A DNA stretch of 64,000 bases from Naematelia aurantialba (Eukaryota > Basidiomycota > Tremellomycetes > Tremellales > Naemateliaceae), in contig JAKFAO010000004.1 of NCBI GenBank assembly GCA_021527695.1, forward strand, positions 496,001 through 560,000, given 5' to 3'. Shown here one piece after another: positions 1,846 to 54,830 of the stretch (position 1 is the stretch's first letter; every line of letters starts with the position of its first letter). A model generated the notes under the pieces. It worked only from the letters and a program-made list of their open reading frames with translations, did no database searches and was not told where the DNA came from. A program made the translations under genes and the position numbers.

Positions 1846-2440
1846 GATGCTGAGAGATTCGATTGTTCGTCAGATGGATGAGGTCAAGCGCACTCGGCCC
1901 AGTGGAGCATTCATCGGTCCCAACATCTTCCTCATTAGCGCCGCAGCCCCCTCGCACCACTATCGCGAGCATCTCCAGCTGCACGTGTGGCAGTCGGTGA
2001 ATCAGCATACAGCAGCCTCCACCAGCGAGGCCGGCGGCCAGTTGCATCGACGACGTCCCAACGACTGCGAGTTGAGAGTGAAAAATGGCCATCCAGCAGG
2101 CGGCAACTTGTTCCGATGACTAAACACCTCCACAGGCTTCAGGGACTGCACACTGATCGTCCAAATTCCAGTTGCCTCCGGCCGAGACCCGATACCCATC
2201 TCGTCGGGTCGTTGAAGATGAAAGCTGGCAGCAGCGCAAGTCGCAAGGGTACTTGGGTAGCTGTAGCGGCTATCACAGAACATGCATGTCTTCTGGGCCG
2301 TATCAGATGCACAACGCCATGGCCCCTGTTGCTGCCATGGCACCCGGGAGAATTCGGCCTTCCACTCTCGGATGTCCGGAAATGGCCGGCCGATAGTTCC
2401 AGCCCAAGACAAGCTTCACTGGCCTTCTCACCGCATGTGC
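1846..2440. other. Intergenic, 5' of the SDR gene and outside the transposon
   Basis: About 600 bases with no recognisable gene. Open frames here on both strands have no family motif and read like chance frames. The stretch holds the SDR promoter and probably the left flank of the transposon; no clear TATA box or duplicated target site was seen. Confidence 0.5.
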
Positions 2441-2508
2441 AATTAATCTCGGTTTGCATACACAAAATCCCAGTCTGATTTTGGAAATCCGTCATAAACC
2501 AGTATACA

Positions 2509-2635
2509 CCGTCAAAATCCCGTCTTCGTTGTCAGAATCTCGACTTCGTTGTCAGAATCCCGTTTTCGTTGTCAAAATCTCGACTTCGTTGTCAAAATCT
2601 CGACTTCGTTATCAAAAGTTCGCCTTCATGCTTAA
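2509..2635 (+). repeat. Left subterminal 20-bp tandem repeat (about 6 copies)
   Basis: Six head-to-tail units of about 20 bp, such as AAAATCTCGACTTCGTTGTC and AGAATCCCGTTTTCGTTGTC, with one to four differences each. The same motif occurs inverted near 12.6-12.7 kb. Subterminal repeats of this kind commonly serve as transposase-binding sites in MULE and hAT elements; that role here is inference. Confidence 0.8.
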
Positions 2636-2952
2636 ATTGCCGACATTGTCTGCAACTTACTGACTCTGGCATTGTCACCCAGTGTTGCCGTCTGTTATGG
2701 ATCTTAGCCCGTCATCAGCATACACTATGCACCCCATTCGGTTGCCCGAATGCCTTTTGGAACACTCATGTGCGTGCTAGGGTTGAATGTATGAACAATG
2801 GTTGGTGCGCTGAGTCGTGAAACATCAGGGGTCTCTTTTCTTTCGGGAGTCGAGCACTTCGAAGCATTTTCCAGGGTTTCCCATTTTACCATTCACCTCT
2901 TACCTTACTTCTTCTCTGACCACCACATCGAGTCACGTTTCTTGCAGCGATC

Positions 2953-4755
2953 ATGCCTCCTCGACACAGCATATCGTCCACGCGAAACGCTGGAGCCACT
3001 CCTGCTAAGTCCCGCAAGAAATCCCCAGCTCCAACACCCTCACGGGCTTCGGCAAATCCTGAAGTTGTCGCACGAAACAACCGCTATGCCTCTGCTTGGA
3101 TCCATACAGCTCAGGCCTCGGACCCGGTCTTCGCCTCAGCAGAGGGTCTGGCTGACATCGAGCGACTAATCGGCCGTGCCATACAGCCATACTCCCATTG
3201 CCCACCCGATTTCTTTCCGACTGTGGCTCTCAAATTCGGCTTGGAGCGTTACTTGCCCACACCCGGTCTTCCCTTAGGAAGTCGTGGCCCTGCTTGCCAT
3301 GTTGAGGGTCTCAAAAAGGCTTGCCACAAACCTTGCTTACCTGCATTCCTCTATACGTAAGTGCGTCGGGCTGGGTCGAGTTGACTCATCAGCTCACCGA
3401 AATTATCTTGTGACAATTGTGTCAAGCACGGTTTTCCTACCCTCATTTGGTGGTACACAATCAACTCGAGCTCGCTTCCAGGTGGACGGCTAAGCGAATT
3501 GGTCCCCCAATCCTGCTGGGCATGCTACACCAAGGTTTATACCGGTTGTTCGATCACGACTGTCAGCTTATCGGAAGCGAAAGATGCCTCAGAATATGCT
3601 CCCGAGACCCCACCGGCCCTATTCCCACTTACAGAGGAGGTGGAGAAGTCCATGGCGGACTTTACGCCAATGGCAAGGACAGCCAGTCAAGCTGGACTCG
3701 AGTCACCAAGACGGACCCGGTCTTTCAATGCTCCTCCAACTCCGTCTCCCGCTGCCCCGCTACAACACTCTCCAGTTCGGAAGCTTCGCAAGGGACGAGC
3801 CTATCAGCAAGAACTCCGGGATCGAGCGAAGTCCACTGGTTCGGTTCAAACTCGCCAACCTTCGGTCGTCGATGATAAATCTGCCGAGGACTCATCAGGC
3901 GTGGCTGAATTCGCTATGTCATTCCTTACGTTCCCGAATGATATTACATCACTCCCAAGTACACCAAAGCCTGCCGTGTCTCGTCCCACAATTGGGTCGC
4001 TACGTTTTGACATCGAAAATACATTCGCTAGAGCGATTGATGGCGCCGAACGCCATCTCCAGACAGTGCGAACGAATGCTGCAGACGTCACTGGTATCCT
4101 CGATAAATTGTTCTCCCTCTGTCAAGAAGTGGAAGGGGAGGCTCAGTTGGCTACGGCCTCGATTGCTGGTGTGCGGATGGAGAGAGACAAACTGGCGCTG
4201 TCGATGAAGACCATGGACACACGCCTTGCGGAATACACCCGGCAGTTGCGCACACACGAAAGCAGTCAGGCCGAAATGCAAGCAAAGCTATGATTCCTGG
4301 AAAAGCATCTCGATGACGCTCAACGCCAGCAAGCTGTGGTAGACCAGCGCATGGCACAGGCTGTTGAGGATAGGGATAGGGTAAACGCAGAATGCGCTGA
4401 GTTACGGTCTTCGATCAAGGATGCGATTGAACAGCGGGACAGAGCGGATGCTGCGCTTTGTGATGCTTTTGCCGAAGTTGACGAGGTGAAGGCGAGGTCG
4501 ACAGCGGTAGAAATCGAAGTCACCATGCTTAAACGCAGACTTGAGCAAGTGGAACCCAATATGGGGCCAGCTTCGCCGAACACAAAAGGGCCTCTCGAGA
4601 AGGAGAACCCTCTAGCGATGCCTCCTGCAAGGGACGACCCCACGACAACACATCATCTTGAGGTACCTGATGCGGAGCAGCATGCCTCGATGCCCCATTC
4701 TCCCAAGGCGCCGTTCACAGACAAACAGCCGGTGGTAGAGCATCCCACAGTCTAA
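2953..4755 (+). pseudogene. Transposon-borne Cys-rich finger/coiled-coil protein with internal stop
   Basis: No known family was recognised. The first exon starts with a basic Ser/Pro/Arg-rich tail (MPPRHSISSTRNAG). A 36-nt intron (GTAAGT at about 3359 to CATCAG) joins it to an exon with paired cysteines, CDNCVKHGFPT and later CWACYTKVYTGCS, a C-x2-C...C-x2-C pattern that could bind zinc. The C-terminal half is strongly heptad-like (ELRSSIKDAIEQRDRADAAL) and predicts a long coiled coil. The frame is broken by TGA at 4291-4293, between QAKL and FLEKHLDDAQ, and then stays open in the same frame to 4755. A single CGA-to-TGA transition explains it. It lies inside the element and runs convergent to the transposase gene, so it may be an accessory gene of the transposon. 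Confidence 0.6.
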
Positions 4756-4911
4756 TAGCATCCTTGTCTGTTCCTGTGATTCCTCTTGATGTGAATCGGC
4801 AGTTGCCTCAATTTCTGCACATATATTTGTTTACGTTCGGTGGAATGTTTAGAAGCTACAGTTACATCGGAGATGGAATGCATATTTTGCATCTCTCTCG
4901 TACTTAAGTAA

Positions 4912-7900
4912 TCACTGCTTAAGTTGCTTGAACTTGTGCCTCCACTCTGTCATCTCTTCCAATGATCCGAACCAATTGCCCTCCGAAGTCCTGGATTGTA
5001 TCTCTACTTCTTCCAAGAACACCATCACAATCGAGTCTCTGAGGATGGTAGCAGCCTCAGAGGAGTACTCTGCGGATGGAACAGAGAGTCCGAGGAACGT
5101 CGCACACGGACGAAGCCCCTGTAAGACCATCATGGCAGCGGCAGTGGCCAAGGGGCCACACATGTGACTGTCAGTCTGCTTAACCCATCCTATGGCATCC
5201 CTTGACACCTAATATAACATCAGCCAGACGCCTTTTGAGCTCGCCTTGTACCTTGGTATTTGGCACAAAGATCCATCCCTGGTTATCCTCTGATTTGACC
5301 CAGCCTCTCTCTTGTTCGTAATCCAGTCGATCCTGGAGTAACGTGGTCCATTTCTATTTACATCAGCTCTTGAATGTCACTGGACCCAACATACATTTGC
5401 AAGTAAGGGGTGGTCATATATTCCACCAGCACTGTCAACCGGTACTACCACTTTCTGAATTCCGTAAACCACTAGGGCTGCGAAATGTGTCTGCCATGCC
5501 ACCGCTACCACTCCTACAGTGGTTCGGGATCGCCAGGATGTATCCTTGCCGAGCCCAAGCCAGGGTATAGGGCCATTCCTACCGGAGTTTCCCTCAAAGA
5601 CAGGTGTGTGAGTCGTTTGGTTCCACCGAATGAGCGCAGGCGCATAAACCACAGGTCCAGAGCCTACCGTCTGGTAAGCGCGAATGTCCCGCCGAGCTGC
5701 TAGTGACAAACAAGCCGAATCGATGAATTCATCATTCCACCAGCTAGTCTTGTCGTGCAGGTTCGAGAGATATTTGAGTTCGAGATTGACTTTCGGATGT
5801 CGGGTGCGTAAAGTGCTGTTAGACACTCTGGTATTGTTGCGCTGCTTAGGCATGTCCCGACATCGTTTGGCAATCTGTTCGAATAAATCCGCAGACAAGG
5901 GCTGGGGGGGCCCTGATTCATACGAGGACGGCTCACGGGCCGAAATGACATTGTCCTTGTGTCTCTTTGAGGAAATCGGTGCTACCGGCTTGGAAAGGTG
6001 CATAACATTGGGTTGCTCTCTTAGTATTCGATAAAGTGGCCGTAGGTAGGCTGAAGGTGGCGCCCATTGGGGTTCCCGCACCTGATTCCAAGGGTCAAGA
6101 TTTTCGGGCAATAGGCGGGCTTCGTTGGTGTCTCGTAGGGGTTGAGAGGAGCTGGGGGTGATGTCATGAATAGCTGATGCATCTGAATGTGGGACCGAAG
6201 GCTTGATGGGCGCAGGCGCTGCAGCAGGTATGGACAGAGGCTGTGTCGTCACTGATGGCGACTGATCTTCTAGTTCGTGTGCAGGAGGCTGGGACGGGAG
6301 TGTTCGAATGACAGAGATGTCTGGGTTCTCTGCTGCTTTGAGCGTCAATGGTTCAACGCTGTTTAGAATGTCGTCATATTCTAAGGCGAGTTGGACTTCA
6401 GGATAGTGCTTTGGTGTGCCAACGGATGCTGACAGAGCTGTCTGAGAATCCTCATCTGACTCGGGCGAGGTTATGAAATCATCGGCCTCAGTACTAACGC
6501 CCACGAACGGCATCGTTGGGATCGACTCTCTGAGATATGGGTATTCTGAGTCGAATTTTGTGTCCAAGTCCAGACCATTTGCGGCCGCAGGGTCTGAATG
6601 AGCATCCAACTCTGCATCGATTGTCATCATGAGAAGGTCCTGCACCAAAGGTGGTACTGCACTTACGAGTATCATTGAAAATACTTTCCAGGAACCCAAA
6701 TCCATCTGCAGGTGCTGCAAATGGACTGGCCCCTAGCGATGCTCCTTGAGCAGCCGAATAATCTGGAAGTTTCGACTCAACCAGTGCCAAGCCAGAGTCT
6801 TCCATCGAAGGCTGATCGATGCTGAGGCCACTTGGATGGTGACCGACACGTAAGGCTGTCGATGATGCACTTGTGAATTCATCGGATGGGGTACAAGGTT
6901 GAGCATTTGCTGTCCTATAGTCTTCTTCGGGGCCTGACTGCTCAATTGGTTGAAGTATTACTGCAGCAGGATCGACCCCAACTGAGAGAATTGCAGGCGT
7001 AAGTGTCTGAGAATTGCCTGTGGGCAAGACCATGGCCACAGGAGCAGTAGGGACAGGAACAGCAGCGTGGAACTTCCTCTCGGGATCCCCCTTCAACGAT
7101 GATTGGTATGCACCTGTGGGTATGGTTGTGCTGATTGTATGATCGGCTGGTATCAGCAGCTTGGCGCTGCTATTCGGGTGTTCGGAAGCGGCGCTTGAAT
7201 CTTGGGGCATTGATTCTCGAGGCATTTGGATATCGTGCCCAACATGTTCAGAGCGGTCCTCCCGGATTGGGGTTCGCTTCTGGGCCGAATCAATTGTCGA
7301 GGGTTCGAGATCTTCAAATGACTGTGAGCGATGCATATAGGCACACATTGCGATGCACATGGCTATCTGCCTGAACAACTCACTTGCGATGCCCCGATTA
7401 TTGAGTTCACTACTCGGTCGAGATTCGCCACTCATACTATTTTTGCCACTTGTCTCTACCTTGCCGTCCTTATCCCGCTTGTACATGATAAGCACAGGAT
7501 ATTTGCCGTTCTGGAATGCTTCCACTCCAGGAATACTTGAACGGGAAACTCGGTCATCATCAATGACCCACCAAAGCCCCTTATGCCGGATAATGGAGAT
7601 ATAGTGTCCAGAGGAAATGCTACTGCCGACCTTGCAGATGATACCAGATAGTTCGTACTCGAGTGATGGTAGCTGCCTAGTGACCTCCGAAATGTGAGGC
7701 TGATCATAAGACAGTCGGGTCGGTACGAAGAACGGCTCCTCTTGTGCGATAGACATGACTCCGTTTGCTGACAGTGAATTCCACACCACATTGAGACAGA
7801 ATAACGTAGAGTTGAGCGAGAGTGTTGACTTTGCGCGGCAGTAATTATCTTCTCCACAAGTAAAATTTTGGCAGACATTAGTTCTCAGCGATCCTACTTG

Positions 7901-8188
7901 AATTCCATCGTAGATCATTGAAAGCAAGTCACCGCGGCCACCCAGGTCCTTTTGGCGCCGAGGATGGATCGTGAGCACCTTTAAGTTTGGCGATTCGTCG
8001 AAGCAAACCGATCGCTCGTTGCAGGCCAAACAATGGAATTCGCTTGTGATATCTAGTTCGAACACAGATCCAAAAGCTCGATCTGGATGCAGCCTGTCCA
8101 GGTACTCGATCAATTTATAAAACAGGTGGACGGGATCTTCCATCTGGGATGACGAATCCACAAGACCGTAGGCTACCCAAATGAGCAT
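4912..8188 (-). CDS. Transposon gene, C-terminal half: USP catalytic His region plus Ulp1-type protease
   Basis: This continues the frame of the transposase gene after the TAA at 8189-8191. It opens with SSQMEDPVHLFYKLIEYL, matching the Q-x-D-x-x-E/H-F segment of ubiquitin-specific proteases. Cysteine pairs follow (FHCLACN; NFTCGEDNYC), then the His box SSGHYISIIRHKGLWWVIDD. After a long Ser/Pro-rich linker and a GTAAGT intron near 6665, a C48/Ulp1-like domain appears: WWNDEFIDSACLSLA, WQTHFAALVVYG (His), VVPVDSAGG (Asp) and KQTDSHMCGPLAT (Gln...Cys-Gly-Pro), the last reached through two short introns near 5380-5340 and 5255-5210. The full USP and Ulp1 catalytic sets are visible, so both folds could be active. 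Such enzymes remove ubiquitin or SUMO from proteins. The stop falls at 4912. Confidence 0.75.
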
Positions 8189-11100
8189 TTACCATTTGTT
8201 AATGACTAATGACTTGCCATGCAACTGTTTGCGGAGTGCTGGGAACTCTTGAGGTGTATCACCACTCAGACTGTCAAGAAAGGAGCTGAGTAAGGTAATG
8301 ACACCGTCGGTCGACATCGTTCGGTCTCCTTTGCTGGCTTGCAAAGGTGCAACCCAGCATGGCTGTCGACACAAGACTTGCAGCAGTGATAAAACATAGC
8401 AGTCAATTCCTGTATTGATTGCACCTATAGGTTGTTCCATTTTTGCTGTTACTTTAGCCGATAAGGCGAGCGAGCTTGCCTGTCTCTTCCTGTTTGGTTG
8501 CAGGGGCCGAATGTTTGCGGGACGCCCATCGAGAGGGCTAGACGGGAAAGCCGTTGAGAGTTGATTATCGACATCGATGGCTTGGTGACGTCGCCCTATA
8601 GGGGAGATCTCTCTCAAGAATGGAGCAGATGCCTCCCTGCCGTCCGGTTGCAGTTTATTGAGAGTTATATCTTTGGCTGGTGAGGTTTCGAGATGCTCAG
8701 GGCTATAGGATGTGGCCGTGCCGGATGCGGGATCTGACTGTTCGGGGGAAGGCAGTGCGTCTGTGCCTGGCGCGAGATCTGGCTTCATTCGACTAGGCGG
8801 TGCATCGTTGGCTGGGGTGAGGCTTTCACCGTGCCGGTGAATTTGTGGACTTCTGCCTTGACGGGAGGGTTGTGAGGGTTGGACAGCTTGAGACTTCCTG
8901 AGGCTTGCAGGCAGCAAAGGAGGAAACACTTGGGATGATGAAGTGACAGACTTCAACTTCGCACTGGAGGTGGCATTATTAGGTGGTACCGGCAAACATT
9001 CGAGGTCCAGAGTCGAAAGAGACTTGAGTTCATTGATGTTTTCGTTCCAATAACCCTCGAAGTCCTCCCTATCGTCGGGTAAGTCGATCTTGGTCCTGGT
9101 GAATTGGACGCGTCGCAATTTCTCCCCAATCGAGGCTGCGTTCTCGTCGAACTCCAAGATTGGGCCACAGAGTTCATATGCCACCATCGCCCATAGATGC
9201 ACACAACGCTTTCCTGTCTGCTCCGAATAACGACAAGTGCAGACCTCTCGGTTCTGTCCTGTGTTGTCTCTGCGCCCGCAATACTGAGGTCGATGTCCTG
9301 AACCTCCTTGACGCCGAGGGGGATATACACAGTAAACTGTAGTCCCAAACAGACGTCTCTGTGGGACCGGTACTGCGCTAATGCGGCATGGACGAACACA
9401 ATCAACCTCCCATCGGTGCAGACCACCAAAGAGAGCTCGTTCGAGGTCAACACTAGGTCTGGATTGACGGTGAGGAACATGTTCATAGAATGGGAAATAG
9501 GCGGTGATGAGTATCGAAATCAAACGATCCAATCTGGTCCAAGTCAGCATTGCTGGCTTCGTTCTCAAGCTGAACAGGCTCTACCTCTTGTTGGCACGAC
9601 ATCCTAGGAACACACGGTCGAAAGTCCTGAAACTTGCTTCGGTATAGTTATTGGTCGACCAAGGGCCATCTCGAGTCACATGGGAAGGCATTCCATAGTC
9701 CACCACGTACGCCCGCCATCGTTCGCTGAACCATTCCCGTTCGAGGTAGTCGGCAAAGAGTTGCCAGGATTCACCTTGGTCTTGCGCTAACTCCTTGACC
9801 TCCTCCCTCAAAGTGCCATAATACTGGTTCCAGAGCTGGGGTGAAGGACAACGCTGGCAACGCCTTATTGCTTCCAACAGGGCCGATGTCATGATCTCGC
9901 CATTTTGAGAGCGTCCAAAAACCTTTCTGGCTTTCGATCGACAGGCTTGCATGACATGAAACTGGCACACTCGTATCGCGATGTCGGGGAAAGCCTGCTC
10001 TATTGCTGTTCGAGATGGGTCATCACCATCGATCATCATAAATGCTGGTGTGAGTCCGTCGAACACCACCGCTTGACACGCGCTCACAACATCCTCTTGA
10101 CTGATATCTTCGACAGGTATGAAGACATCCCCGTTGACGATCTCGGTTGCTATCTTGACGACAGCAGTCTTGAATGTGGCCAGGAGATAACTGTATGCTT
10201 CATGGTCACTGTGATTAGAGACCATGGCGGCAACTGAGACTGTCAGTGCGGCACTGGCTGCCCAAGCTTACGTGGAATCATTCGGTGATGGTCATTGATA
10301 GTTACGAGCATAGTCAGAGGACATCGAAAGGCATTCTTATTCCGCCAGGATGCATCCATGTACATGCCCATTCGGAACACTTGAAGAATTGCCATCACCA
10401 GCGAGTAAGGGGAGGAGATGACGCATTCGAAGCGATCGGTTTTGTTGATTGTGGCTGTCTGCTTATCTCCAAGACATTTCGGGTACCTAGAACTTAAACA
10501 AGCTTAGCAGGTTACTACTACTCCTCGATGTCAGAACACGAACGCCAGAAATGCCTCAGGATGACGCTGAGCGAGGATCTCTATTGCGACCAGCGGACTT
10601 TTGTCGAGGCGGCCGATCCGCTGAGCGGTGACAACAGCCGTTCGATAGTCTTTGACCGTCGGGAGCCGATGGGGACAATTCTCTTGGATCCATTGAGCAT
10701 GAGTATCCGTTGTCAAGATATGCTGGGTGAACCCTGCAGCAGAATATCAGTGAAAGGAGGCTCGTCTCATTGGACAAGACATACAAGCACTGAGGGCCCC
10801 TTGGGTCATGCCACAACCTGATGCAGCCTCGTGCAGGATGCGTCTCATGTAGTGGGAGGGCCGCAATAGGCCTAGGGACTTGACAGATGGATGCCATTCT
10901 TTCTTTTGTAAGAAGATCGAACAGACCCCTTCCCTGCATTGACGGACGGTCATCTGCACCTAGAAACAGTATGAGCAACAACTAGATGGTCCAACATACC
11001 ACTAATTTTGAGTTGCAGGCTATAAGCTTGTTACGAGCTTTATGAGGCCTCACCGCAGAATCTTCGGAATCCTCTTCGCTTTCAGGTTCACTTTTGGTAT

Positions 11101-12300
11101 CGGAATCATCATCGCTAGATGGCTGGAGACCCTCTCTTGGTTTGTCCTCTGCACATCGCTGTCAGCCAATCCTCTAAGTATTGAACAGAGTCATCAGCCT
11201 ACTATGTACCCGTACCCCAGCATAGAAGTAGTCGTCGCTCAGGTCTTGGTCATCTTTGCTTCCGGCAACTTTGTCTGCTTCCTGAGATGGTTCCGGAGTG
11301 AAAAGCGAGGGGCAAGAAGTTTCGCTAACGTGAGACATGCGGCGTTTGTGTTCGGTTCGTCTGCGGACAGCACCGATTGCATAGTTGTAGAGCTGTGGGC
11401 CCAGGTTGTCGCGAGTAGACACAGAGGAACGGTGGACGTCATTGTCGTTTGCCTCACTGCGACAGGCACCATTACACGTATAGTTCACCCGCCATATTAC
11501 TCGATCACCTGAGAGATGTGGGTACTCCGGGTTTATGAGAATACGCAGACGCCGACCACGAATGTCGGCTGGTGCAAGACCTGGACCGTCCATCCAATGT
11601 ATGGTTGCTTGTTCATGAATCACATGTCCTTCCAGATTATAATCGTTTTTCTACAGCCGTCAGCAAGTATAGGCATACACCTAGAATCTCAAACTTGCAA
11701 GTTGTTCGAAATATCGCACAATCTCATCCGTTTGGATCACTTGACCCTCGTACCCCTCATCCTGCGTCAATTTCAGTCTCATTGACAACAGCCGTCGACG
11801 TTTCTTGACACCTGGTGTCCGACAAGGTGAAAAGGAGATTCCAACAGGGCTAGAGTCTGGCGAATTTTCCGTGGGTGTGGAAAGATCCCCAACAAGATGG
11901 AGATCTTTTGCTTGATGGTACTGAGTCGCCCACAAGTCGAAAGAAGAGTCTGCCTCCTTGAAAGAAGAGTCTGTGGGAGACTCGTGCAGGGCGCCGTTGG
12001 ATGACGGAGACGTGGAGAGTTCGCCATTATGGCGGAGGGCATGAGATGCAAGTAGATCAGCGACCTGGAGAGGTGAGTCTGTCGGAGAGGAGACTGGGGA
12101 GATATCCAGTGAAAAGGTCGCTGCTTTGTATCTTTTCTTGGGTGTTGCCGTAGGAGTACGAGCCGCTGCACGTTTAGTAGGTGTTTCCGGTCGCCTCGGG
12201 AGTTTTCTGGGTCTTCCTTTCTTCTTTACCCGAGAAGCCTTTGAGACGAGATCGACAGGCACAACTCCTTCAGGTGGTAAACGAGGATGGAATGGTGCCA
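8189..12300 (-). CDS. MULE-type transposase with AT-hook, SWIM finger and USP Cys box
   Basis: The start MAPFHPRLPPEG at 12300 is followed by an AT-hook-like KKKGRPRKLPRRPE. Short introns join later exons. The transposase core shows MGMYMDASWRNKNAF (first Asp, about 10350), MMIDGDDPSRTAIEQAFPD then VCQFHVMQACRSK (second Asp and the C/H motif, about 10040-9950), and WSTNNYTEASFRTFDRVFL (Glu, about 9640). This is the MULE DDE layout. A SWIM finger follows: VCTCRYSEQTGKRCVHLW (CxCx(n)CxH, about 9240-9190). After a Ser/Pro-rich linker comes a USP Cys box, INTGIDCYVLSLLQVL (about 8420-8370). The frame ends at TAA 8189-8191 but continues directly into USP sequence, so the stop looks secondary. A further frame change near 9480 (FYEH to MFLTVNPDLV) has no visible intron. 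Confidence 0.8.
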
Positions 12301-12604
12301 TGTCAATCTGTAGACGGATTGACAAATGTGGTCTTCATGAATCCAAGTGGATGTCGATCCATCTTCATGATTGATGGAGTGGATGCTGACAGGGTCTGTT
12401 TTGCCTCGAGGAGACAAATTGATTGTACCTGAAACAATACCGAACGCCTTGTCGTACCATGAAACACGTCCGAACGTGCTTTTGTCGCTGGCACCGAACA
12501 CCACCTGGAGCAGACCGAATGGCCCGAACAGGCATCCGTTCAACCTTGTTGAAGCTCCCCGTTGTATTGTGGCTGTTCGTCATCCTCATTCGATGTTCTC
12601 TATG

Positions 12605-12700
12605 GGAAGCCGAGATTTTGTCCTAGGAAGCTGGGATTTTGTGGACGAAGTTGGGATTATGTCTGACAAAGTCTGGATTTTGCAGCTGAAGTCGGGACAA
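12605..12700 (-). repeat. Right subterminal repeat, inverted relative to the left copy (4-5 units)
   Basis: Read on the minus strand, the units AAAATCCAGACTTTGTCAGAC, ATAATCCCAACTTCGTCCAC, AAAATCCCAGCTTCCTAGGAC and AAAATCTCGGCTTCCC match the left array in length and core (AATCYCGACTTCG). They are more diverged than the left copies. Confidence 0.7.
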
Positions 12701-12942
12701 TGCCGCCCAGTTGCCCCGCTTTGTTCTCGAGACCGGCATAATGCCCATCACACCGGAGTTTTGCAATATTTCAAATTACAGTACGATATCTTGTCACCGA
12801 ATTCTGGTTTATCTGGTTTTGCCCTTCTCACCACCATTCTACCGCACAACCTAGACCGTAGATCGTAGACCATAGACGCCTTATCGCCTGTATCCTGTAT
12901 CCCGACCGCGAGAGTGCTCGTCGGTGGGATGAGTCGGTTCCC

Positions 12943-20876: not shown

Positions 20877-21270
20877 CTCGTACAGACTCCTTGAGCGGCG
20901 GGAGAGATTCGGCAGAATACACGTCTGGTTCGATGGTGGGGTGTGCGGCGATGAGGCGGCTGGAGGCTGAGTGACGTGTTTGGGGATGGTAGGTGCTTGG
21001 GATGATCAGGTGCTTAGGGATGGGTGAGGTCATTGAGGATGGTGGGCAGCTTGGACTAGACAATATACGCTCTGCTTGTGTGCTTAGGATTGGGGAGGCG
21101 GTTGTGTGTATAACCAGCTTTGCTTGTAGATTACTGTTTGGGAAACATGATGATGCAGCCGTTCACTCGCACACGGTGATGCAACCGTTCATTCGTACGT
21201 TCTCCATTCTACATCGCTCGTCCAAGGCAGATAGTGTGGGGATGTATGCAGTATAGTTGCCCTGATGCTG

Positions 21271-21400
21271 TATACAGGAGTATACAGGAGTATACAGGAG
21301 TATACAGGAGTATACAGGAGTATACAGGAGTATACAGGAGTATACAGGAGTATACAGGAGTATACAGGAGTATACAGGAGTATACAGGAGTATACAGGAG
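21271..21400 (+). repeat. Thirteen perfect copies of a 10-bp repeat (TATACAGGAG)
   Basis: The unit TATACAGGAG is repeated 13 times without a single mismatch, just downstream of the RdRP stop codon, so in its 3' untranslated region or terminator zone. The rest of the 20877-21425 interval has no gene. Confidence 0.97.
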
Positions 21401-21425
21401 TCAGGAGTTGTACCTTCTTCAAGAC

Positions 21426-24400
21426 TCAGAAATCGCCATCGCTGAACATGGCCTTGTGCGTCGGCTTGAGGGAATCAAAAGCGGCGCTCGTGATGGGAAC
21501 CGTCGCGCCGGCCCCCGCTGACTTGGCCTTGATGGCGCAGGCCGTGTGGAAGTCGAGATCGAACCTGGTCGTTGACTGTTAGCTGGCTCGTGAAGGAGCG
21601 GTGGCGCGGATGAGGTGACGAAGACGAGGTAACAAAGACGAGGTGACGGAGACGAGGTGACGGAGACGAGGTGACGGGGAGGAGGTGACGGGGACGAGGT
21701 GACGGGGACGAGGTGACGGGGACGAGGTGACGGGGAGGAGGTGATGGGAGTTGAGGTGATTGGAGTTGAGGTGATTGGTGCTGAAGTGATTGGTGCTGAA
21801 GTGATCGGTGTGTGACGGGACAAGTTGCGGGACAGTAACTGGACGGGTGCCTTGTGAGGTGACTGGACAGGTGACTGGACGGGTGATGTGAAGACAAGTG
21901 ATGTGGATGAGGACTGGGTTGCTGCGCGGGATGGCTGAACTGGAGACGACGAGGTGACGGCAGACAAGGGACGATCCACTAACGGCATGAACACCTTCCG
22001 CTTGCGCCCCTGCACCCAGTCCTGCTGGGCTGCACAGGCGACCTTGAGTTCTCGCAAGATATCGTCCCTGCCCAACGGGCACAGGAGCGGCACCTGCTCC
22101 GCCGACGGGTGGGACCGCCAAATCGCGGCTAGCTGGTTCATCCGCGCAGACCTCACTCTGCTCTGCGACGGCGGCGCGCCGTCGCTTGACGTTGACGTCG
22201 ATTTCGAGCGCAGCCACGCCCCGGGGGTGCGTGGCGTCGGCGGGCGGCGCGGGGCTGTTGTAGGTTCCCGGCCTTCCAAGGACTGGAGGTACTGCTCGAG
22301 CATGGGCGTCGAGTCGTCGTATCGCCCAATATGGATGTTCTGCCACACTCTCTCGCATGCCTGGACGTGCAGCCGCACCATGTCCAGCTGGTCAGCGAGG
22401 CCAGGTGGCGCCGGTTCTCGTCCTGGTCTTGGTGCTCGTCCTGGTTCCGACTCGGAGGCCGTCGCAGTTCGCCACAGCTGGCCGAGGACGACGGCGTCGC
22501 TGCTCGTCTTGCTGGACGGCGCGCCGGGGGTGAACGCCGAGAGCAGCTCGTTCTTCCGGCTCTTGCCGGCAGTCATGATCTGGTCCATCTGGGGCCACTG
22601 TATCAGCTGGACTGTAGGTCGGGGCGGCGAAGGGAACAAGGAGACATGCGAAGGCAGGGGCTCACGATGAACGCGCCCAGCGATGGGGGCCGCATGATGT
22701 CTATCTCGTTGTACGGGTTATCGCCAAGCTGCGTCTCGCCCTCCTTCTTCCACCTGCGCCACTCAACTCGCCCGCCATACGCCTGCTTGTCCCGCTTTTT
22801 GGTCGCCTTCTTGACGACGAGCCCACTCTTCCTGGCATCCAAGACGTGGTTGAACCTGCCTATTCAGTGCACTCTCCCTTGTGCGCGATCGGACTCACAT
22901 CCGAGCGAGGCGCAGCGTTTCGGGATGGTCAAAACCAAGCTTGTACACGGCTGTTCCGTGCATCTCCGAGTCTGCACCACGTTATACAAACGCTCGCAAG
23001 GCCGAGTAGAAAGACTCACATTCCCCCGTCGACTTGTCATCCAGTAACGCCGAGAGCAGAAAGTGCTGCAAGTTGGCAATCGTCCCCTCTTCGTCCTGGG
23101 GGTCGAGGTGTGCAAGGAACGCTGCACCGGTCAGGACTTCCTTGTCAAAGTTGTCCGCCACAAAATTTACAGGCACATCGGCCAGCTCGTGTGGGGCGTT
23201 GGTGAATGCGTTGACAAGCTCCGAGTCCCAGAAGAGCTGCACCGTGTCGCCGTCGTAATCGCCACCGGCGAGTAAGCTCGCAGGAGAACGTTGGCAGAGG
23301 GTCGAATCGGCCGACATGACGATACAGTCACGCAGGTGGGCAAGCTCGGGCTTGTAGACCCCTCTGAACTTCTGCACATCGGTCGGCAACTTGCACGGAG
23401 ACCGAAAGGCGAGGACGTCGCCGACTAGATGAGCCATCTGGCACTGCGTCGTAGGATCCACAGGACCGTTGGACGAGAATGCCACATGGATCTCGTCTGG
23501 GGCGAGAGACCCAGTCGAGTCGGGCACGATGAACGCGCTGAGGCTGTTGGCCACTGGTATCCGGAACTTCTGCAAGATCTGGTCAGACAATGACGAGAAT
23601 AGGAACCGCAATTTGTCGGATGCATAGTCTGACTCGAGGGGATCAAAGCCGGCAACGAGCACTCGGTACAAACTATCGGATCAGCTGCGCCACCAAAGTG
23701 GCAAAGATCACTGACCATTCACCAGCGGAAGCAGGCGCCTTGCTTTCCGTATCGATCGATATATCCATGTCCTCGTCCAGCTCTGGTGATGATACTTCGG
23801 CGTCATATGCTGTCCTCAATCCTTGGACTTTCGCGGACATGCCTTGTTCCGCACACTGCCGCTTCTTGACATCGGCAGCAACTCCACCCAAGCGGTACAC
23901 ACCCGCGATTAGCCGCCGCTTTGCTTCCTCTGGCGTCTCTAGCGGAGATGTTTGCGGTGCGAGAGTATCTCGAAGTCCATTCAGACTAGTGGTCATGAGT
24001 GCCAAGAATGTATCCGGTGAGACTCCGCCATGCACCATTGCGATAATGGGTTCCGAGGTCAGCGCGGTACCGTTTCGCAGACTGTCGAACCGGACGACAT
24101 CAAGAGATAGTAAAGATGGATCGCTTGTGTACTCGGCGCGCGAGATTGCCTTGATCATTGACGGGCGTAGCAACACGTCTTTGCCGGGATATCGCTGCTG
24201 CTCTTCTCTGCTCATGAGAACGAGCATGCCCTTAGCGCCCGAAATACGCATCTGCACTGCGCACGGCAGTGCCGAATGTGGACATAGCTTGTCGCGTATT
24301 TGGCGAGCGACGGTCTCAGCTGAAGACGCATCAGTTCAGACAGTGTCATCTCACATACACATTAGACCGGCTCCATCGCTCAATATCTGCTCTGCCGCTG

Positions 24401-28829: not shown

Positions 28830-30469
28830 ATGGCCTCGATCAAGATCTTCAGCTTGGCAGTCAAGGTGTGTCCGCGAGTAGCGTTTCCTGCCTGGTAGGA
28901 GCTGGCTGACCGTAGCACTCCTGGATTCTTGTTCCTCTCTCCCTGCTGTTCCTTCTTCCCTCTGATGCCCTGGACATCTGTGGGATATCACAACGGTGGT
29001 CGTCCGGCACCCGTCTAATCGGATGATAATGCCCATCTGTTGTTCGCTTTCTACGCCTTGGCCCATCTGGTGGTAGACCCTTGCCAAGCCCATAGCGAAT
29101 ACCATCAAGGCCCAAGCAGCCGAGTGCGTCACTCCTTCCCTTGGCATTTTGCACTTGCTCCCTCTCCCATACTCCCCTCCATTAACTCTCCCTCCTCCCC
29201 TCTTCTTCTCATGGCGTCCCTCCTTCTCTTCCCGATCGCTTCTCTGCCGTTATCATTCTCCCCAGAATGAGCTCGGAACCCGGTAAGGAGACGGCAGCCA
29301 GCGATCTGTTCCGGATCCAGCGTCGAATCCAACGACCAACCCCGGGCTAGCTTGGGCCCAGCGATGGAGCTTGCAGCCAGCGAAATATAGCTCGGAAGAC
29401 GCAAGTGACTTGCAGTAGGCTGATCATCCCAGCAGACACGAAACGTTTCGCAACATCTGCATTGGCCTCGCGCAGCGCATGCATCGGGCCGAGGCGAGGA
29501 TGCGGATGGGGCTCTTAAATGAGGAAGCGAAGAATATCAAGCCTCTGAATGATACGAGGTGGGTCATGCTTCTGTTCTCTCCATCTGCTTCCCCCTCTCC
29601 TCCTCTTCCTGCCTTCGTCCTTCTTCCGTCTGCCTTCGTCCTTCTTCCGTCTGCCTTCGTCCTTCTTCCGTCTTCCGTCGCCTGTCGCCTGGCTTCATTC
29701 TTCTGTCTTCTGTCGTCCCTCTTCCGTCTCCCTTCTTCCTTCTGACTTCTTCGTTCTTCCTCCTCTTCATGCCATATCGCGCACGTACGCATATCCACCC
29801 GCCTCTCGCCCTCGGCCGGCTGCCAACATCCGCTGACCAACGGATGCAGAGCCGTCCAGAACGGCGCTACAACCCTCGCCGAGACATTCCTCTTCCTCGT
29901 CGGCGCTGGCCTGGTGTTGGGCGAGTCGTTCAGGTCGTCGAGAAAGGAAGGGAAAAGGCGGGATCTAGTCTCTGAACGGCTGGATGGACTCGAGGAGGAG
30001 ATGAGGGCTTTACGAGCGACGTTGGAAGGCGGTGGGGGTTGGCAGGACGGTTTGTCAGAGATTAGACAACAGTGAGTCTTGTTTCCTATCTGGACTGTCC
30101 AAGGCGTGCATTACACGGGGCGCACCTCCGTGTTGTGCGCTCTGTCTTGTGATACGGGATGATGCCTCGACTCGCATCCAGGATGATGCCCTCGCCCTAA
30201 TTTCAGGCGTCTCAAACCGACCAGTTGCGCTGATGCCCCACAGGAACGAACAGATAGAAAAGGTCCTCGCGACTGTCATACATAATGGCCTGAAAGCCGG
30301 CTGGATGTCCCTGGGCCACGACCCAGATACACCTCACGCTTTACCACTCGTTCAAACTGGGCAACGGGCCTTTCCGCCTGCGCCGCGGATACAGGGACTT
30401 TCGCTGCAGCCACGTGAAACAAACAGTAACACTGCATCTTCTATCAATAGCCAGGATCCCAAGTCTTAA
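28830..30469 (+). CDS. OPA3: OPA3-like mitochondrial membrane protein
   Basis: Five exons are inferred. MASIKIFSLAVK (28830-28865) joins TLAKPIANTIKAQAAE (29078-29124), then HETFRNICIGLAQRMHRAEA (29436-29562), then AVQNGATTLAETFLFLVGAG (from 29850), and the last exon opens NEQIEKVLATVIHNGL. These blocks match the OPA3 family, small mitochondrial proteins linked in animals to optic atrophy and 3-methylglutaconic aciduria, with one hydrophobic segment (FLFLVGAGLVLG) and a following coiled coil. Introns are unusually long for this window (about 170-310 nt), and the intron at 29563-29849 is filled with a CTTCCGTCTGCCTTCGTCC pyrimidine repeat. The stop is TAA at 30467-30469. Confidence 0.88.
29580..29765 (+). 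repeat. Pyrimidine minisatellite in an OPA3 intron
   Basis: Units close to CTTCGTCCTTCTTCCGTCTGC recur at least three times at 29615-29680, surrounded by further C/T-rich sequence to about 29765. Confidence 0.8.
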
Positions 30470-33646: not shown

Positions 33647-34452
33647 CTAGGGGCCTGGCATCAGTGCGAGCCACTTGCAGATTGCCGTCGTGAGGTGAGT
33701 CACCAACGTGCGTCGTCCGTCGTGAACGTGAGTGTGAACGGGAATCGCGAGAACGTGAGTGTGAACGGGAATCGCGAGAGTGAAGAGAGTCGTGGACGTG
33801 AGTGTGAGCGCGGACCTACAGAACCAATGCCGTTTCCAACCTACTGCCAGCAAGCAGAGGCCAACGACCAGCACCCCAAAGACTAGGAAGGTCGGCACGA
33901 TGTAGCTCCCGTAACACTTGATCTCGCTGTTGGCGTCAGCTTTGCGCCTGCTCTCATCCAGCTTTGCGCCTGCTCTTATACAGCTTTGCGCCTGCTCTCA
34001 TACAGCTTTGCGCCTGCTCTCATACAGCTTTGCGCCTGCTCTTATACAGCTTATACAGCTGAGGGTTGGGGGTCGCTCATTTCTCCGTCTTCTCCGTCGG
34101 GTCGCAGGAACCAAAGCCCCCCTCACCTCCAGAGACATTCCCTGCTGAGCTTCGGCAGCCCCTCCCGGTGCCCCGTCGTCCCAATCGCCGCGGACCCATC
34201 GCCACCGCTGGACGTCGTGTCCGTGTATCCTCGAGGCTCTCCATACCCTCGCGTCGAATTTCCATACCCTCGCGTCGTATTTCCATACCCTCGAGGTTGC
34301 GGCTGAGGCTGGAGCGAAGTGGAGGAAGGCGTGCCGCCATCGTCGGGGAGTGCCGAGGCCGAGGGGAAGGAGATTTGGGTGGTCGAGAGACGGTGCGTGT
34401 CGGAGCGGTTTACGTGGGCCGGTAAGAGCGGCTGGCGGTCAGACGGTGGCAT
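33647..34452 (-). CDS. Small hypothetical protein with C-terminal membrane anchor
   Basis: No family recognised. The start MPPSDRQPLLPAHVNRSDTH is followed by a seven-residue repeat (RGYGNTT, RGYGNST, RGYGEP, RGYTDT). A clear donor (GTGAGG after CTCTGGAG, about 34126) pairs with the acceptor GCTGACGCCAACAG near 33927, joining RECLW to SEIKCYGSYIV and the hydrophobic helix PTFLVFGVLVVGLCLLA. The product would be about 140-200 residues with a single C-terminal transmembrane helix, hence probably tail-anchored. Whether a second intron follows LLA is ambiguous, because its length keeps the frame and both versions use the same TAG. The intron (33927-34126) is largely a 22-bp minisatellite. Confidence 0.5.
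33724..33777 (+). repeat. 27-bp direct repeat, two exact copies
   Basis: The unit begins GAACGTGAGTGTGAACGGGA and ends ATCGCGA, repeated head to tail. It lies in the 3' part of the small membrane-protein gene, in coding sequence (VLAIPVHTH repeats) or a possible intron. Confidence 0.85.
33937..34046 (+). repeat. 22-bp tandem repeat, five copies
   Basis: Five units of CAGCTTTGCGCCTGCTCTCA plus two bases, differing only at the last positions (ATC, ATA or TTATA). They lie inside the predicted first intron of the small membrane-protein gene. Confidence 0.95.
34240..34297 (+). repeat. 21-bp coding repeat, about 2.8 copies
   Basis: Units start TCCATACCCTCGCGTCG. At 21 bp they keep the reading frame and encode the RGYGN(S/T)T heptapeptide repeat on the minus strand. 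Confidence 0.85.
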
Positions 34453-54616: not shown

Positions 54617-54714
54617 GACGGACCAGCTCGAGCTTTGGCAGGATGGACGAACGAGTCGTGAAGAGGATGCAAGGAAAGGTGAAGGGGAAAGAGAAGCCTT
54701 ATGGAAGGGGCCTG

Positions 54715-54830
54715 GAAGGAAGGAGGTAAGGAAGGAAGGAAGGAAGGAAAGGAGGAAGCAAGGAAGGAAGGAAAGGAGGAAGCAAGGAAGGAAGGAAAGA
54801 ACTACGGAAGGAAGGAAAGAAGTGAAGTAG
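54715..54830 (+). repeat. GGAA-rich microsatellite in a divergent promoter
   Basis: GAAGGAAGGAAGG runs and AAGGAGGAAGCAAGGAAGG units over about 115 bases. The tract starts about 100 bases upstream of the permease start, within the divergent interval 54617-55371. Confidence 0.85.

What the first reader, a model, noticed from the sequence alone, without database searches (positions are those of the whole stretch)
4912..12300. One transposon gene fuses a MULE transposase, SWIM finger, USP deubiquitinase and Ulp1 deSUMOylase
The sequence shows, in one minus-strand reading order, the MULE DDE core (MYMDASW, MMIDGDDP...CQFH, NNYTEASF), a SWIM finger, the Cys and His boxes of a ubiquitin-specific protease, and the His/Asp/Gln-Cys set of a C48 protease. 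MULEs carrying Ulp1 genes are known in plants (Kaonashi), and Ulp1 domains occur in Zisupton-type elements. A USP plus Ulp1 pair on one transposase gene is, as far as I know, not a described arrangement. It suggests that the element removes ubiquitin and SUMO from its transposase or from host silencing proteins (inference).
Basis: partly seen in the sequence, partly recalled or inferred. Interest (0 to 1): 0.8.

Follow-up and report, generated by a model that had tools for sequence, protein, structure and literature searches.

The report
Jumping gene fused to two proteases
A mobile DNA element in a fungus carries one gene that joins its jumping enzyme to two different proteases of the kinds that strip ubiquitin and ubiquitin-like tags from proteins, and the same fusion is found in several related fungi, which hints that the element interferes with its host's protein-tagging machinery.

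Summary
Window 2433-12822 is a complete, recently mobile Mutator-like element (MULE): a second copy (99.97% identical) lies on another contig, each copy with its own 9-10 bp target duplication. Its minus-strand gene (12301-4912; 12 inferred exons, 2264 aa, no internal stop) joins an AT-hook-like N-terminus, MULE core, SWIM-like finger, USP domain (PF00443, 53 bits) and a C-terminal Ulp1-like domain. Two other MULE families in this genome (at least 5 and 4 copies) and public proteins of four other tremellomycete fungi show the same order. Five Polyporales relatives have a Pfam C48 protease and no UCH match. Ulp1-carrying plant MULEs and deubiquitinase-carrying Helitrons are known; in the held papers I found no USP, or USP plus Ulp1, fused to a MULE transposase. 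Function is inferred.

The parts
2433..12822 (.). whole transposable element, family A (10390 bp); ends GCATGTGC... and ...GGTTTTGC; 10-bp target-site duplication CCTTCTCACC on both sides
   Evidence: collinear near-identical copy on contig C12 with a different 9-bp duplication (CAACTTAAG)
4912..12301 (-). fusion gene: exons 12301-11695, 11628-11216, 11146-11000, 10959-10785, 10733-10544, 10486-10272, 10233-9585, 9533-8207, 8143-6667, 6611-5395, 5332-5252, 5208-4912; 2264 aa
   Evidence: splice sites chosen by eye, GT-AG, frame-consistent; the exact sites of introns 1, 2 and 8 are uncertain. 8 of the 11 introns have a counterpart of the same phase at the matching place in my models of families B and C; introns 1 and 8 have counterparts of another phase, intron 2 has none
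12203..12217 (-). AT-hook-like GRPRK (residues 29-33)
   Evidence: sequence; GRPRK also in families B and C; the name AT-hook is recalled, not tested
9629..10365 (-). MULE DDE core from MYMDASW (residue 552) through MMIDGDDP, CQFH to NNYTEASF (777-784)
   Evidence: PF10551, 36.9 bits, above cut-off
9197..9241 (-). SWIM-like finger CTCRYSEQTGKRCVH (897-911)
   Evidence: PF04434 below cut-off; motif conserved in B and C
7532..8428 (-). USP domain (residues 1168-1445), Asn1172, Cys1177, His1421, Asp1436; split by intron 8206-8144
4996..5775 (-). Ulp1-like protease domain (about residues 2013-2237), His2109, Asp2126, Gln2177, Cys2183; split by introns 5394-5333 and 5251-5209
2511..2630 (+). left subterminal array of a 20-bp motif (about GTCAAAATCYCGACTTCGTT), five close units and a sixth diverged one
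   Evidence: (family D6); candidate transposase-binding sites (inference)
12604..12679 (-). right subterminal copies of the same motif, inverted; four, with 1-3 mismatches to the 14-base core
   Evidence: (local alignment score 24, largest of 200 shuffles 13); three of them pass the matrix threshold
3385..4755 (+). convergent second gene for a coiled-coil-like protein (judged by eye), in two open pieces (3385-4290 and 4294-4752) separated by an in-frame stop in this copy; the window copy and copy 2 differ at that codon
   Evidence: families B and C have a convergent coiled-coil-like ORF in the same place without detectable sequence similarity

Best explanation
Shown or strongly supported: window 2433-12822 is a recently mobile MULE without terminal inverted repeats. 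Its transposase is encoded as one protein with a USP domain and a C-terminal Ulp1-like protease, an arrangement kept across diverged families and species. Inferred mechanism: the transposase brings ubiquitin- and ubiquitin-like-directed activity to where it binds (its own DNA ends and target chromatin). The Ulp1-like protease removes SUMO or a related modifier. The USP part binds ubiquitin and, in families that keep the Cys, cleaves it. Acting together they would spare the transposase, or chromatin at donor and target sites, from SUMO-dependent ubiquitination and degradation or silencing. In families B and C the USP part would have become a ubiquitin-binding module without cleavage.
For: One open frame across all domains. 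Complete element; second copy with 3 substitutions in 9,969 aligned bases plus 427 identical, each copy with its own target duplication. Same domain order, alignable from end to end with long gaps in the linkers, in families B (5 copies) and C (4 copies) of this genome, and in public single-gene models P0001, P0003, P0004, P0005 and P0007 (marked partial); P0002 lacks the Cys box in its model. USP Cys kept in 6 of 8 aligned sequences, His and the first Asp of the Asp motif in 8 of 8; in the Ulp1-like part His/Asp in all 8 sequences whose models hold that segment, Gln/Cys in 9 of 9. B-C dN/dS: MULE+SWIM 0.08, Ulp1-like 0.13, USP 0.17, linkers 0.24 and 0.30, N-terminus 0.47. Trees of the three domains show no strongly supported conflict. 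[quoted passage not shown]
Against: No RNA or protein data: splicing and fusion are predicted, and a product could still be processed. Pfam C48 does not match this protein's C-terminus, the PDB profile search gave only three weak Ulp1-type hits (E 0.26-0.44), and modifier specificity cannot be read from sequence. USP catalysis is probably lost in two of three families in this genome, which argues against deubiquitination being essential. Synonymous sites between B and C are near saturation (dS 1.4-1.9), so dN/dS values are rough. P0003's model lacks most of the USP zinc-finger Cys. Three of 11 introns of the family A model have no same-phase counterpart in B and C. No substrate is known.
Confidence: 0.5

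Rival explanations
1. The proteases act mainly on host chromatin (ubiquitinated or SUMOylated histones and silencing factors) to open donor or target sites, a counter-silencing function like that of VANC proteins of plant non-TIR MULEs, and not on transposase stability.
For: A review reports that Ulp1-carrying VANC-type genes (KIU) of plant non-TIR MULEs induce hypomethylation of related elements (PMC13317346, passages only). An AT-hook-like motif and a SWIM-like finger could bring the protein to DNA.
Against: In the plant elements the Ulp1 part is described as one of three genes of the element; here it is fused to the transposase. The same review calls the function of the plant Ulp1 domain unknown. 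Nothing in the sequence points to histones as substrates.
Confidence: 0.25
2. One or both proteases process the long fusion protein itself (polyprotein-like self-cleavage), releasing the transposase.
For: Long low-complexity linkers separate the domains in family A; some related viral proteases process polyproteins (recalled).
Against: No cleavage site was searched for systematically; linkers and N-terminus are the least conserved parts.
Confidence: 0.08
3. USP and Ulp1-like parts are captured host gene pieces without function (ordinary MULE gene capture).
For: MULEs tend to acquire host gene fragments (PMC6446971, start of abstract in the listings).
Against: Same order and conserved catalytic residues in diverged families and species; purifying selection on both domains; a search of this genome with the USP domain listed only copies of families A and B, 12 candidates scored.
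Confidence: 0.05
4. USP and Ulp1-like proteins are separate genes that happen to lie head to tail in the element, read as one by my splicing.
For: Splice sites were chosen by hand; no transcript data; three introns of the family A model have no same-phase counterpart in B and C.
Against: SWIM and USP Cys box share one exon; the intron between USP and Ulp1-like part has phase 1 in my models of all three families; public annotations of four other species give single genes, whose support by transcripts is unknown to me.
Confidence: 0.04

Closest known systems
Plant non-TIR MULEs with Kaonashi (KIU) Ulp1 genes (Arabidopsis, grapevine, melon, rice)
   Same: MULE superfamily, Ulp1-type protease carried by the element, no long terminal inverted repeats
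   Different: There the Ulp1 domain is described as one of three genes of the element, linked to VANC (PMC13317346 passages), not fused to the transposase; that review does not use the word ubiquitin
Polyporales proteins with Peptidase_C48 (Earliella scabrosa P0006, P0008; Lentinus brumalis P0009, P0010; Postia placenta P0011)
   Same: P0006 is related over the transposase part (25% identity over 618 aa to family A, E 3e-43); C48 above cut-off in 5 of 5; SWIM above cut-off in P0006; GRPRN linker motif in P0006
   Different: No UCH match in 5 of 5; PF10551 not matched in four and below cut-off in P0010; a second Q-x5-CG box stands before the C48 domain in 5 of 5 but no profile identified it; P0008 covers only 39% of the P0006 query
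Mutyl subgroup of fungal MULEs (group 35)
   Same: 9-10 bp target duplication and a second ORF in antisense (PMC6446971 table passage); here 9-10 bp and a convergent second ORF
   Different: 22-bp terminal inverted repeats and a C2H2 finger are listed for Mutyl; no protease is mentioned in that paper's main text
Helitron/Helentron transposons with VTD or OTU deubiquitinases
   Same: Transposon protein carrying a deubiquitinase; transposon VTDs were shown active (PMC9741609 passages)
   Different: Rolling-circle elements; other deubiquitinase classes; the OTU examples were not tested for activity
KDZ (Kyakuja-Dileera-Zisupton) and Ginger elements with Ulp1
   Same: Ulp1-type protease linked to a eukaryotic DNA transposon (PMC2836005: search listing only; the KDZ link is recalled)
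   Different: Other transposase superfamilies; not tested here
USP-class deubiquitinases (USP46, USP12, USP34, USP7 in the PDB)
   Same: UCH domain, zinc-binding Cys pairs, catalytic boxes
   Different: Embedded in a transposase; catalytic Cys replaced by Ser in families B and C

Membership tests
Mutator-like element (MULE) | MULE transposase domain PF10551 | tested here: met
   36.9 bits, cut-off 27.6, on the spliced product
Mutator-like element (MULE) | target-site duplication of about 9 bp (9-10 bp listed for the fungal Mutyl subgroup in PMC6446971) | tested here: met
   10 bp and 9 bp at the two copies
Mutator-like element (MULE) | terminal inverted repeats | tested here: not met
   only GCA shared at the tips; subterminal inverted motif arrays instead; non-TIR MULEs are a known subgroup
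Mutator-like element (MULE) | SWIM zinc finger (present in many, not all) | tested here: inconclusive
   motif present, Pfam score below cut-off
USP (peptidase C19) | UCH domain above curated cut-off | tested here: met
   53.0 bits, cut-off 23.9; 7 of 7 aligned family members match at E up to 1, scores of B and C not shown apart
USP (peptidase C19) | catalytic Cys, His, Asp/Asn | tested here: met
   Cys1177, His1421, Asp1436 in family A; Cys replaced by Ser in families B and C
Ulp1/SENP (peptidase C48) | Peptidase_C48 PF02902 in this protein | tested here: not met
   no hit in family A; 2 of 7 family members match, best E 7e-07
Ulp1/SENP (peptidase C48) | His-Asp-Gln-Cys catalytic set in that order | tested here: met
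   invariant in 7-member alignment A1; aligned with Pfam-recognised C48 domains by hhalign
Ulp1/SENP (peptidase C48) | activity on SUMO | not testable with these tools
   related enzymes have other specificities; OtDUB and two Ulp1-type proteases were the only, weak, PDB hits
Kaonashi-type plant MULE | Ulp1 domain in a separate, non-transposase gene | tested here: not met
   one frame with the transposase
KDZ superfamily | KDZ transposase domain | not tested
   no such family was among the Pfam matches, but no dedicated search was made

The most novel reading that the evidence does not exclude
A long-lived basidiomycete lineage of MULEs has made a paired ubiquitin/ubiquitin-like isopeptidase a fixed part of its transposase. 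The pair counters the host pathway that ubiquitinates SUMO-marked proteins. USP catalysis was lost at least once while the domain was kept as a ubiquitin reader, and a differently built protease arm is used in Polyporales.
Probability: 0.3. Interest if true: 0.78.

Novelty: new variant of a known kind. Interest (0 to 1): 0.62.

Why it matters
If the proteases act together on transposase or chromatin, this is a natural fusion in which a transposon carries its own counter to ubiquitin- and SUMO-type control, and a clean test system: the same protein exists with an apparently active USP (family A) and with a Cys-less USP (families B and C) in one genome. It would make the role of ubiquitin and SUMO in limiting DNA transposons directly testable, and the Cys-less USP would be a candidate ubiquitin-binding module selected in a mobile element.

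Tried and rejected
Separate-gene reading: judged less likely because SWIM and the USP Cys box share an exon and public models in four other species are single genes.

Second gene as a homologue across families: tblastn of the two family A pieces against B and C gave nothing significant (best E 0.36); only position and coiled-coil-like make-up (by eye) are shared.

First Q-x5-CG segment of the Polyporales proteins as a second Ulp1 or a USP relative: hhalign confirmed neither (probability 20% or less). In that set P0008 does not show the His box of the others.

The 20-bp motif in families B and C: 0 matches in each at the threshold used, though both ends of B and the right end of C were not held; 2 matches in the 51-kb rest of the window. 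The matrix was built from the left array itself, so scores there are circular. Single copies with 3 mismatches are at chance level (28 matches in all, shuffles mean 9.7, largest 16).

Structure prediction was not run: the spliced proteins are not contiguous in the window and the public relatives exceed 1200 residues; I did not try fragments. Pfam was not run on the whole spliced proteins of B and C, only on their USP and Ulp1-like pieces.

Terminal inverted repeats: none found beyond 3 bases. Target duplications of families B and C are untested because the ends needed were not held.

Splice models of B and C: most sites are the best-scoring; the last intron of each was chosen by analogy with family A and not by score (34 nt each), and some ties were broken by eye.

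Papers: searches are. Passages by 'find' were requested for PMC6446971, PMC12730594 (none of the terms occur), PMC13317346, PMC13359780 (none of the terms occur) and PMC9741609; all other papers were seen only as listings. The library lacks most subscription journals, so absence there is weak evidence.

Protein searches scored 7994, 7715 and 7984 candidates; only those sharing most words. The species list is a lower bound, as are the copy numbers in this genome.
Full report
What is there. The window is contig C10, 496001-560000, of a 21.0-Mb assembly in 15 contigs. The sequence from 2433 to 12822 occurs a second time on contig C12: 9,969 aligned bases with 3 substitutions plus 427 identical bases, with 418 extra bases in copy 2. 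The matches stop abruptly at both ends. The window copy is flanked by a 10-bp direct duplication, CCTTCTCACC, and copy 2 by a different 9-bp duplication, CAACTTAAG. This is a complete transposable element of 10,390 bp, recently mobile. It has no terminal inverted repeat worth the name (GCATG... against GCAAA...). About 80-200 bp inside the left end are five tandem units of a 20-bp motif and a sixth, diverged one; about 145-220 bp inside the right end are four diverged copies in the opposite direction. The two 200-bp ends align in inverted orientation with score 24, against a largest score of 13 in 200 shuffles. I take these as likely transposase-binding sites (inference).

The gene. On the minus strand, removing 11 GT-AG introns of 38-69 nt gives one frame of 2264 aa from 12301 to 4912. 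I chose the splice sites by eye; those of introns 1, 2 and 8 are the least certain. Domain order: AT-hook-like GRPRK (29-33), MULE core (552-784), SWIM-like finger (897-911), USP (1168-1445), a low-complexity linker of several hundred residues, Ulp1-like domain (about 2013-2237). Pfam: UCH 53.0 bits and MULE 36.9 bits, both above cut-off; SWIM 13.0 bits, below cut-off; no C48 hit. SWIM and the USP Cys box lie in one exon.

Other families in the same genome. Exon-wise protein searches found two further families (the tool calls such counts lower bounds). Family B has 5 copies (contigs C1, C2, C11, C14, C15; against C1 the others differ by 2 to 9 bases over about 7.3 kb held, an insert in the C14 copy aside). 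Family C has 4 copies (C9, C12 twice, C14; left end seen at all four). Identity to family A over the longest matched stretch of the transposase is 45-47% (36% over a further stretch of C); the USP part of B is 27% and that of C was not hit by the USP search; the Ulp1-like part is 31-37%. Their spliced products (1794 and 1751 aa) align with family A from end to end, with long gaps in the linkers. My models of B and C share 10 of 10 intron places and phases; 8 of the 11 introns of A match these in place and phase, introns 1 and 8 match in place only, and intron 2 is peculiar to A. So the arrangement is older than the split of these families.

Other fungi. Protein searches returned single-gene models with the same order in Naematelia encephala (P0001), Tremella mesenterica (P0002-P0004), Kwoniella newhampshirensis (P0005) and Tremellales sp. 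Uapishka_1 (P0007, marked partial). Class Tremellomycetes was looked up for the first three; the look-up for the fourth failed and its placement is by name. P0002's model lacks the USP Cys box and P0004's lacks the Ulp1-like His/Asp segment; P0005's UCH and MULE matches fall just below cut-off. More distant relatives in Polyporales (Earliella scabrosa P0006 and P0008, Lentinus brumalis P0009 and P0010, Postia placenta P0011) have a C48 domain above cut-off in 5 of 5 and no UCH match in 5 of 5; PF10551 is not matched in four and is below cut-off in P0010, so their tie to the MULE core rests on sequence similarity (P0006 to A, B and C; P0009-P0011 to P0006 over 94-98% of the query). Before the C48 domain they show another Q-x5-CG box (5 of 5) that profile comparison did not identify.

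Catalytic residues. In the USP alignment (8 sequences; P0002 and P0006 left out) the Cys is kept in 6 and is Ser in families B and C; the His and the first Asp of the Asp motif are kept in 8 of 8. The Ser version is present in all 9 copies of B and C. The four zinc-finger Cys are invariant in the 7-member alignment A2, B and C included; P0003, which is not in A2, lacks most of them in its model. In the Ulp1-like alignment (9 sequences; P0006 left out) Gln and Cys are kept in 9 of 9, and His and Asp in the 8 whose models include that segment.

Is the C-terminal domain Ulp1-like? Pfam C48 matched 2 of 7 members, best E 7e-07. A PDB profile search gave three weak hits, all Ulp1-type (E 0.26-0.44). 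Profile-profile alignment to the Pfam-recognised C48 domains of four Polyporales proteins gave probability 73% and E 3.2e-05, with His, Asp, Gln and Cys aligned. I judge the fold assignment likely. The substrate (SUMO, NEDD8 or ubiquitin) is open.

Selection. Between B and C, Nei-Gojobori dN/dS is 0.08 (MULE+SWIM), 0.13 (Ulp1-like), 0.17 (USP), 0.20 (segment before the core), 0.24 and 0.30 (linkers) and 0.47 (N-terminus); dS is 1.4-1.9, so values are rough. The Cys-less USP therefore looks kept by selection. Trees of MULE core, USP and Ulp1-like parts (10, 8 and 9 sequences) group B with C at 100% in each, and P0002 with P0003 at 100% where both are present; the other branches have 20-93% support, and P0005 is placed differently in the USP tree with support under 50%. 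This fits co-inheritance but does not prove it.

How it most likely works (inference). The transposase recruits the two isopeptidase-type domains to its DNA ends and to target chromatin. Removing a SUMO-type modifier while binding or removing ubiquitin is what would be needed to escape SUMO-dependent ubiquitination (pathway recalled). That fits the pairing, and the loss of USP cleavage with retention of the fold suggests that ubiquitin binding is the more basic role. The alternative target is silencing chromatin, as suggested by plant non-TIR MULEs, where Ulp1-carrying VANC-type genes are linked to hypomethylation of related elements (PMC13317346, passages). Helitron-borne deubiquitinases are a functional precedent in another transposon class (PMC9741609, passages).

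Novelty. No paper in the held library contains all of the terms MULE, transposase, Ulp1 and ubiquitin-specific protease, and seven further searches listed none whose title or abstract start describes the fusion. The main text of a survey of 1631 autonomous MULEs holds no word beginning with ubiquitin, protease, peptidase or Ulp (PMC6446971); that of an arthropod survey holds none beginning with ubiquitin, Ulp1 or peptidase (PMC13359780). The library is partial. I rate it a new variant of a known kind: a MULE with a USP and Ulp1-like transposase fusion. The public relatives are filed as hypothetical or uncharacterized proteins; source names include 'USP domain-containing' for P0001.

None of these moved the odds.

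Noticed in passing
copy 2 of the element, C12 (between the bases matching window 2855 and 2859); family B copy on C14: 418 extra bases in each: a body with TGTCA...TGACA ends and a 5-bp duplication. The two bodies are 97% identical and lie in opposite orientation; they look like solo LTRs of a young retrotransposon.
   Followed up: partly
family C copy, C12:68001-78403: Two inserts of about 490 bp, 96.5% alike, each flanked by a repeat of at least 4 bp (CAAC, GTGG), split this copy.
   Followed up: partly
window 3385-4755: Convergent coiled-coil-like second gene, interrupted by a stop in the window copy; the window copy and copy 2 differ at that codon. Families B and C have a convergent coiled-coil-like ORF in the same place (407 and 514 codons, both open to the edge of what was held) without detectable similarity.
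   Followed up: partly
between SWIM and the first protease, families A, B, C and P0006: A short linker motif GRPxxxxPL recurs just before the first protease, also in the Polyporales protein that has no USP match.
   Followed up: no
P0011 (Postia placenta), P0006 and P0008 (Earliella scabrosa): Some Polyporales relatives carry further domains after the C48 protease: a TauD-type dioxygenase in P0011 (above cut-off) and a PHD-like finger in P0006 and P0008 (below cut-off).
   Followed up: no
window 21240-21431, 21586-21753, 29588-29762, 33915-34052, 54687-54826: Several tandem repeat arrays (periods 10, 14, about 21, 22 and about 8) elsewhere in the window.
   Followed up: no
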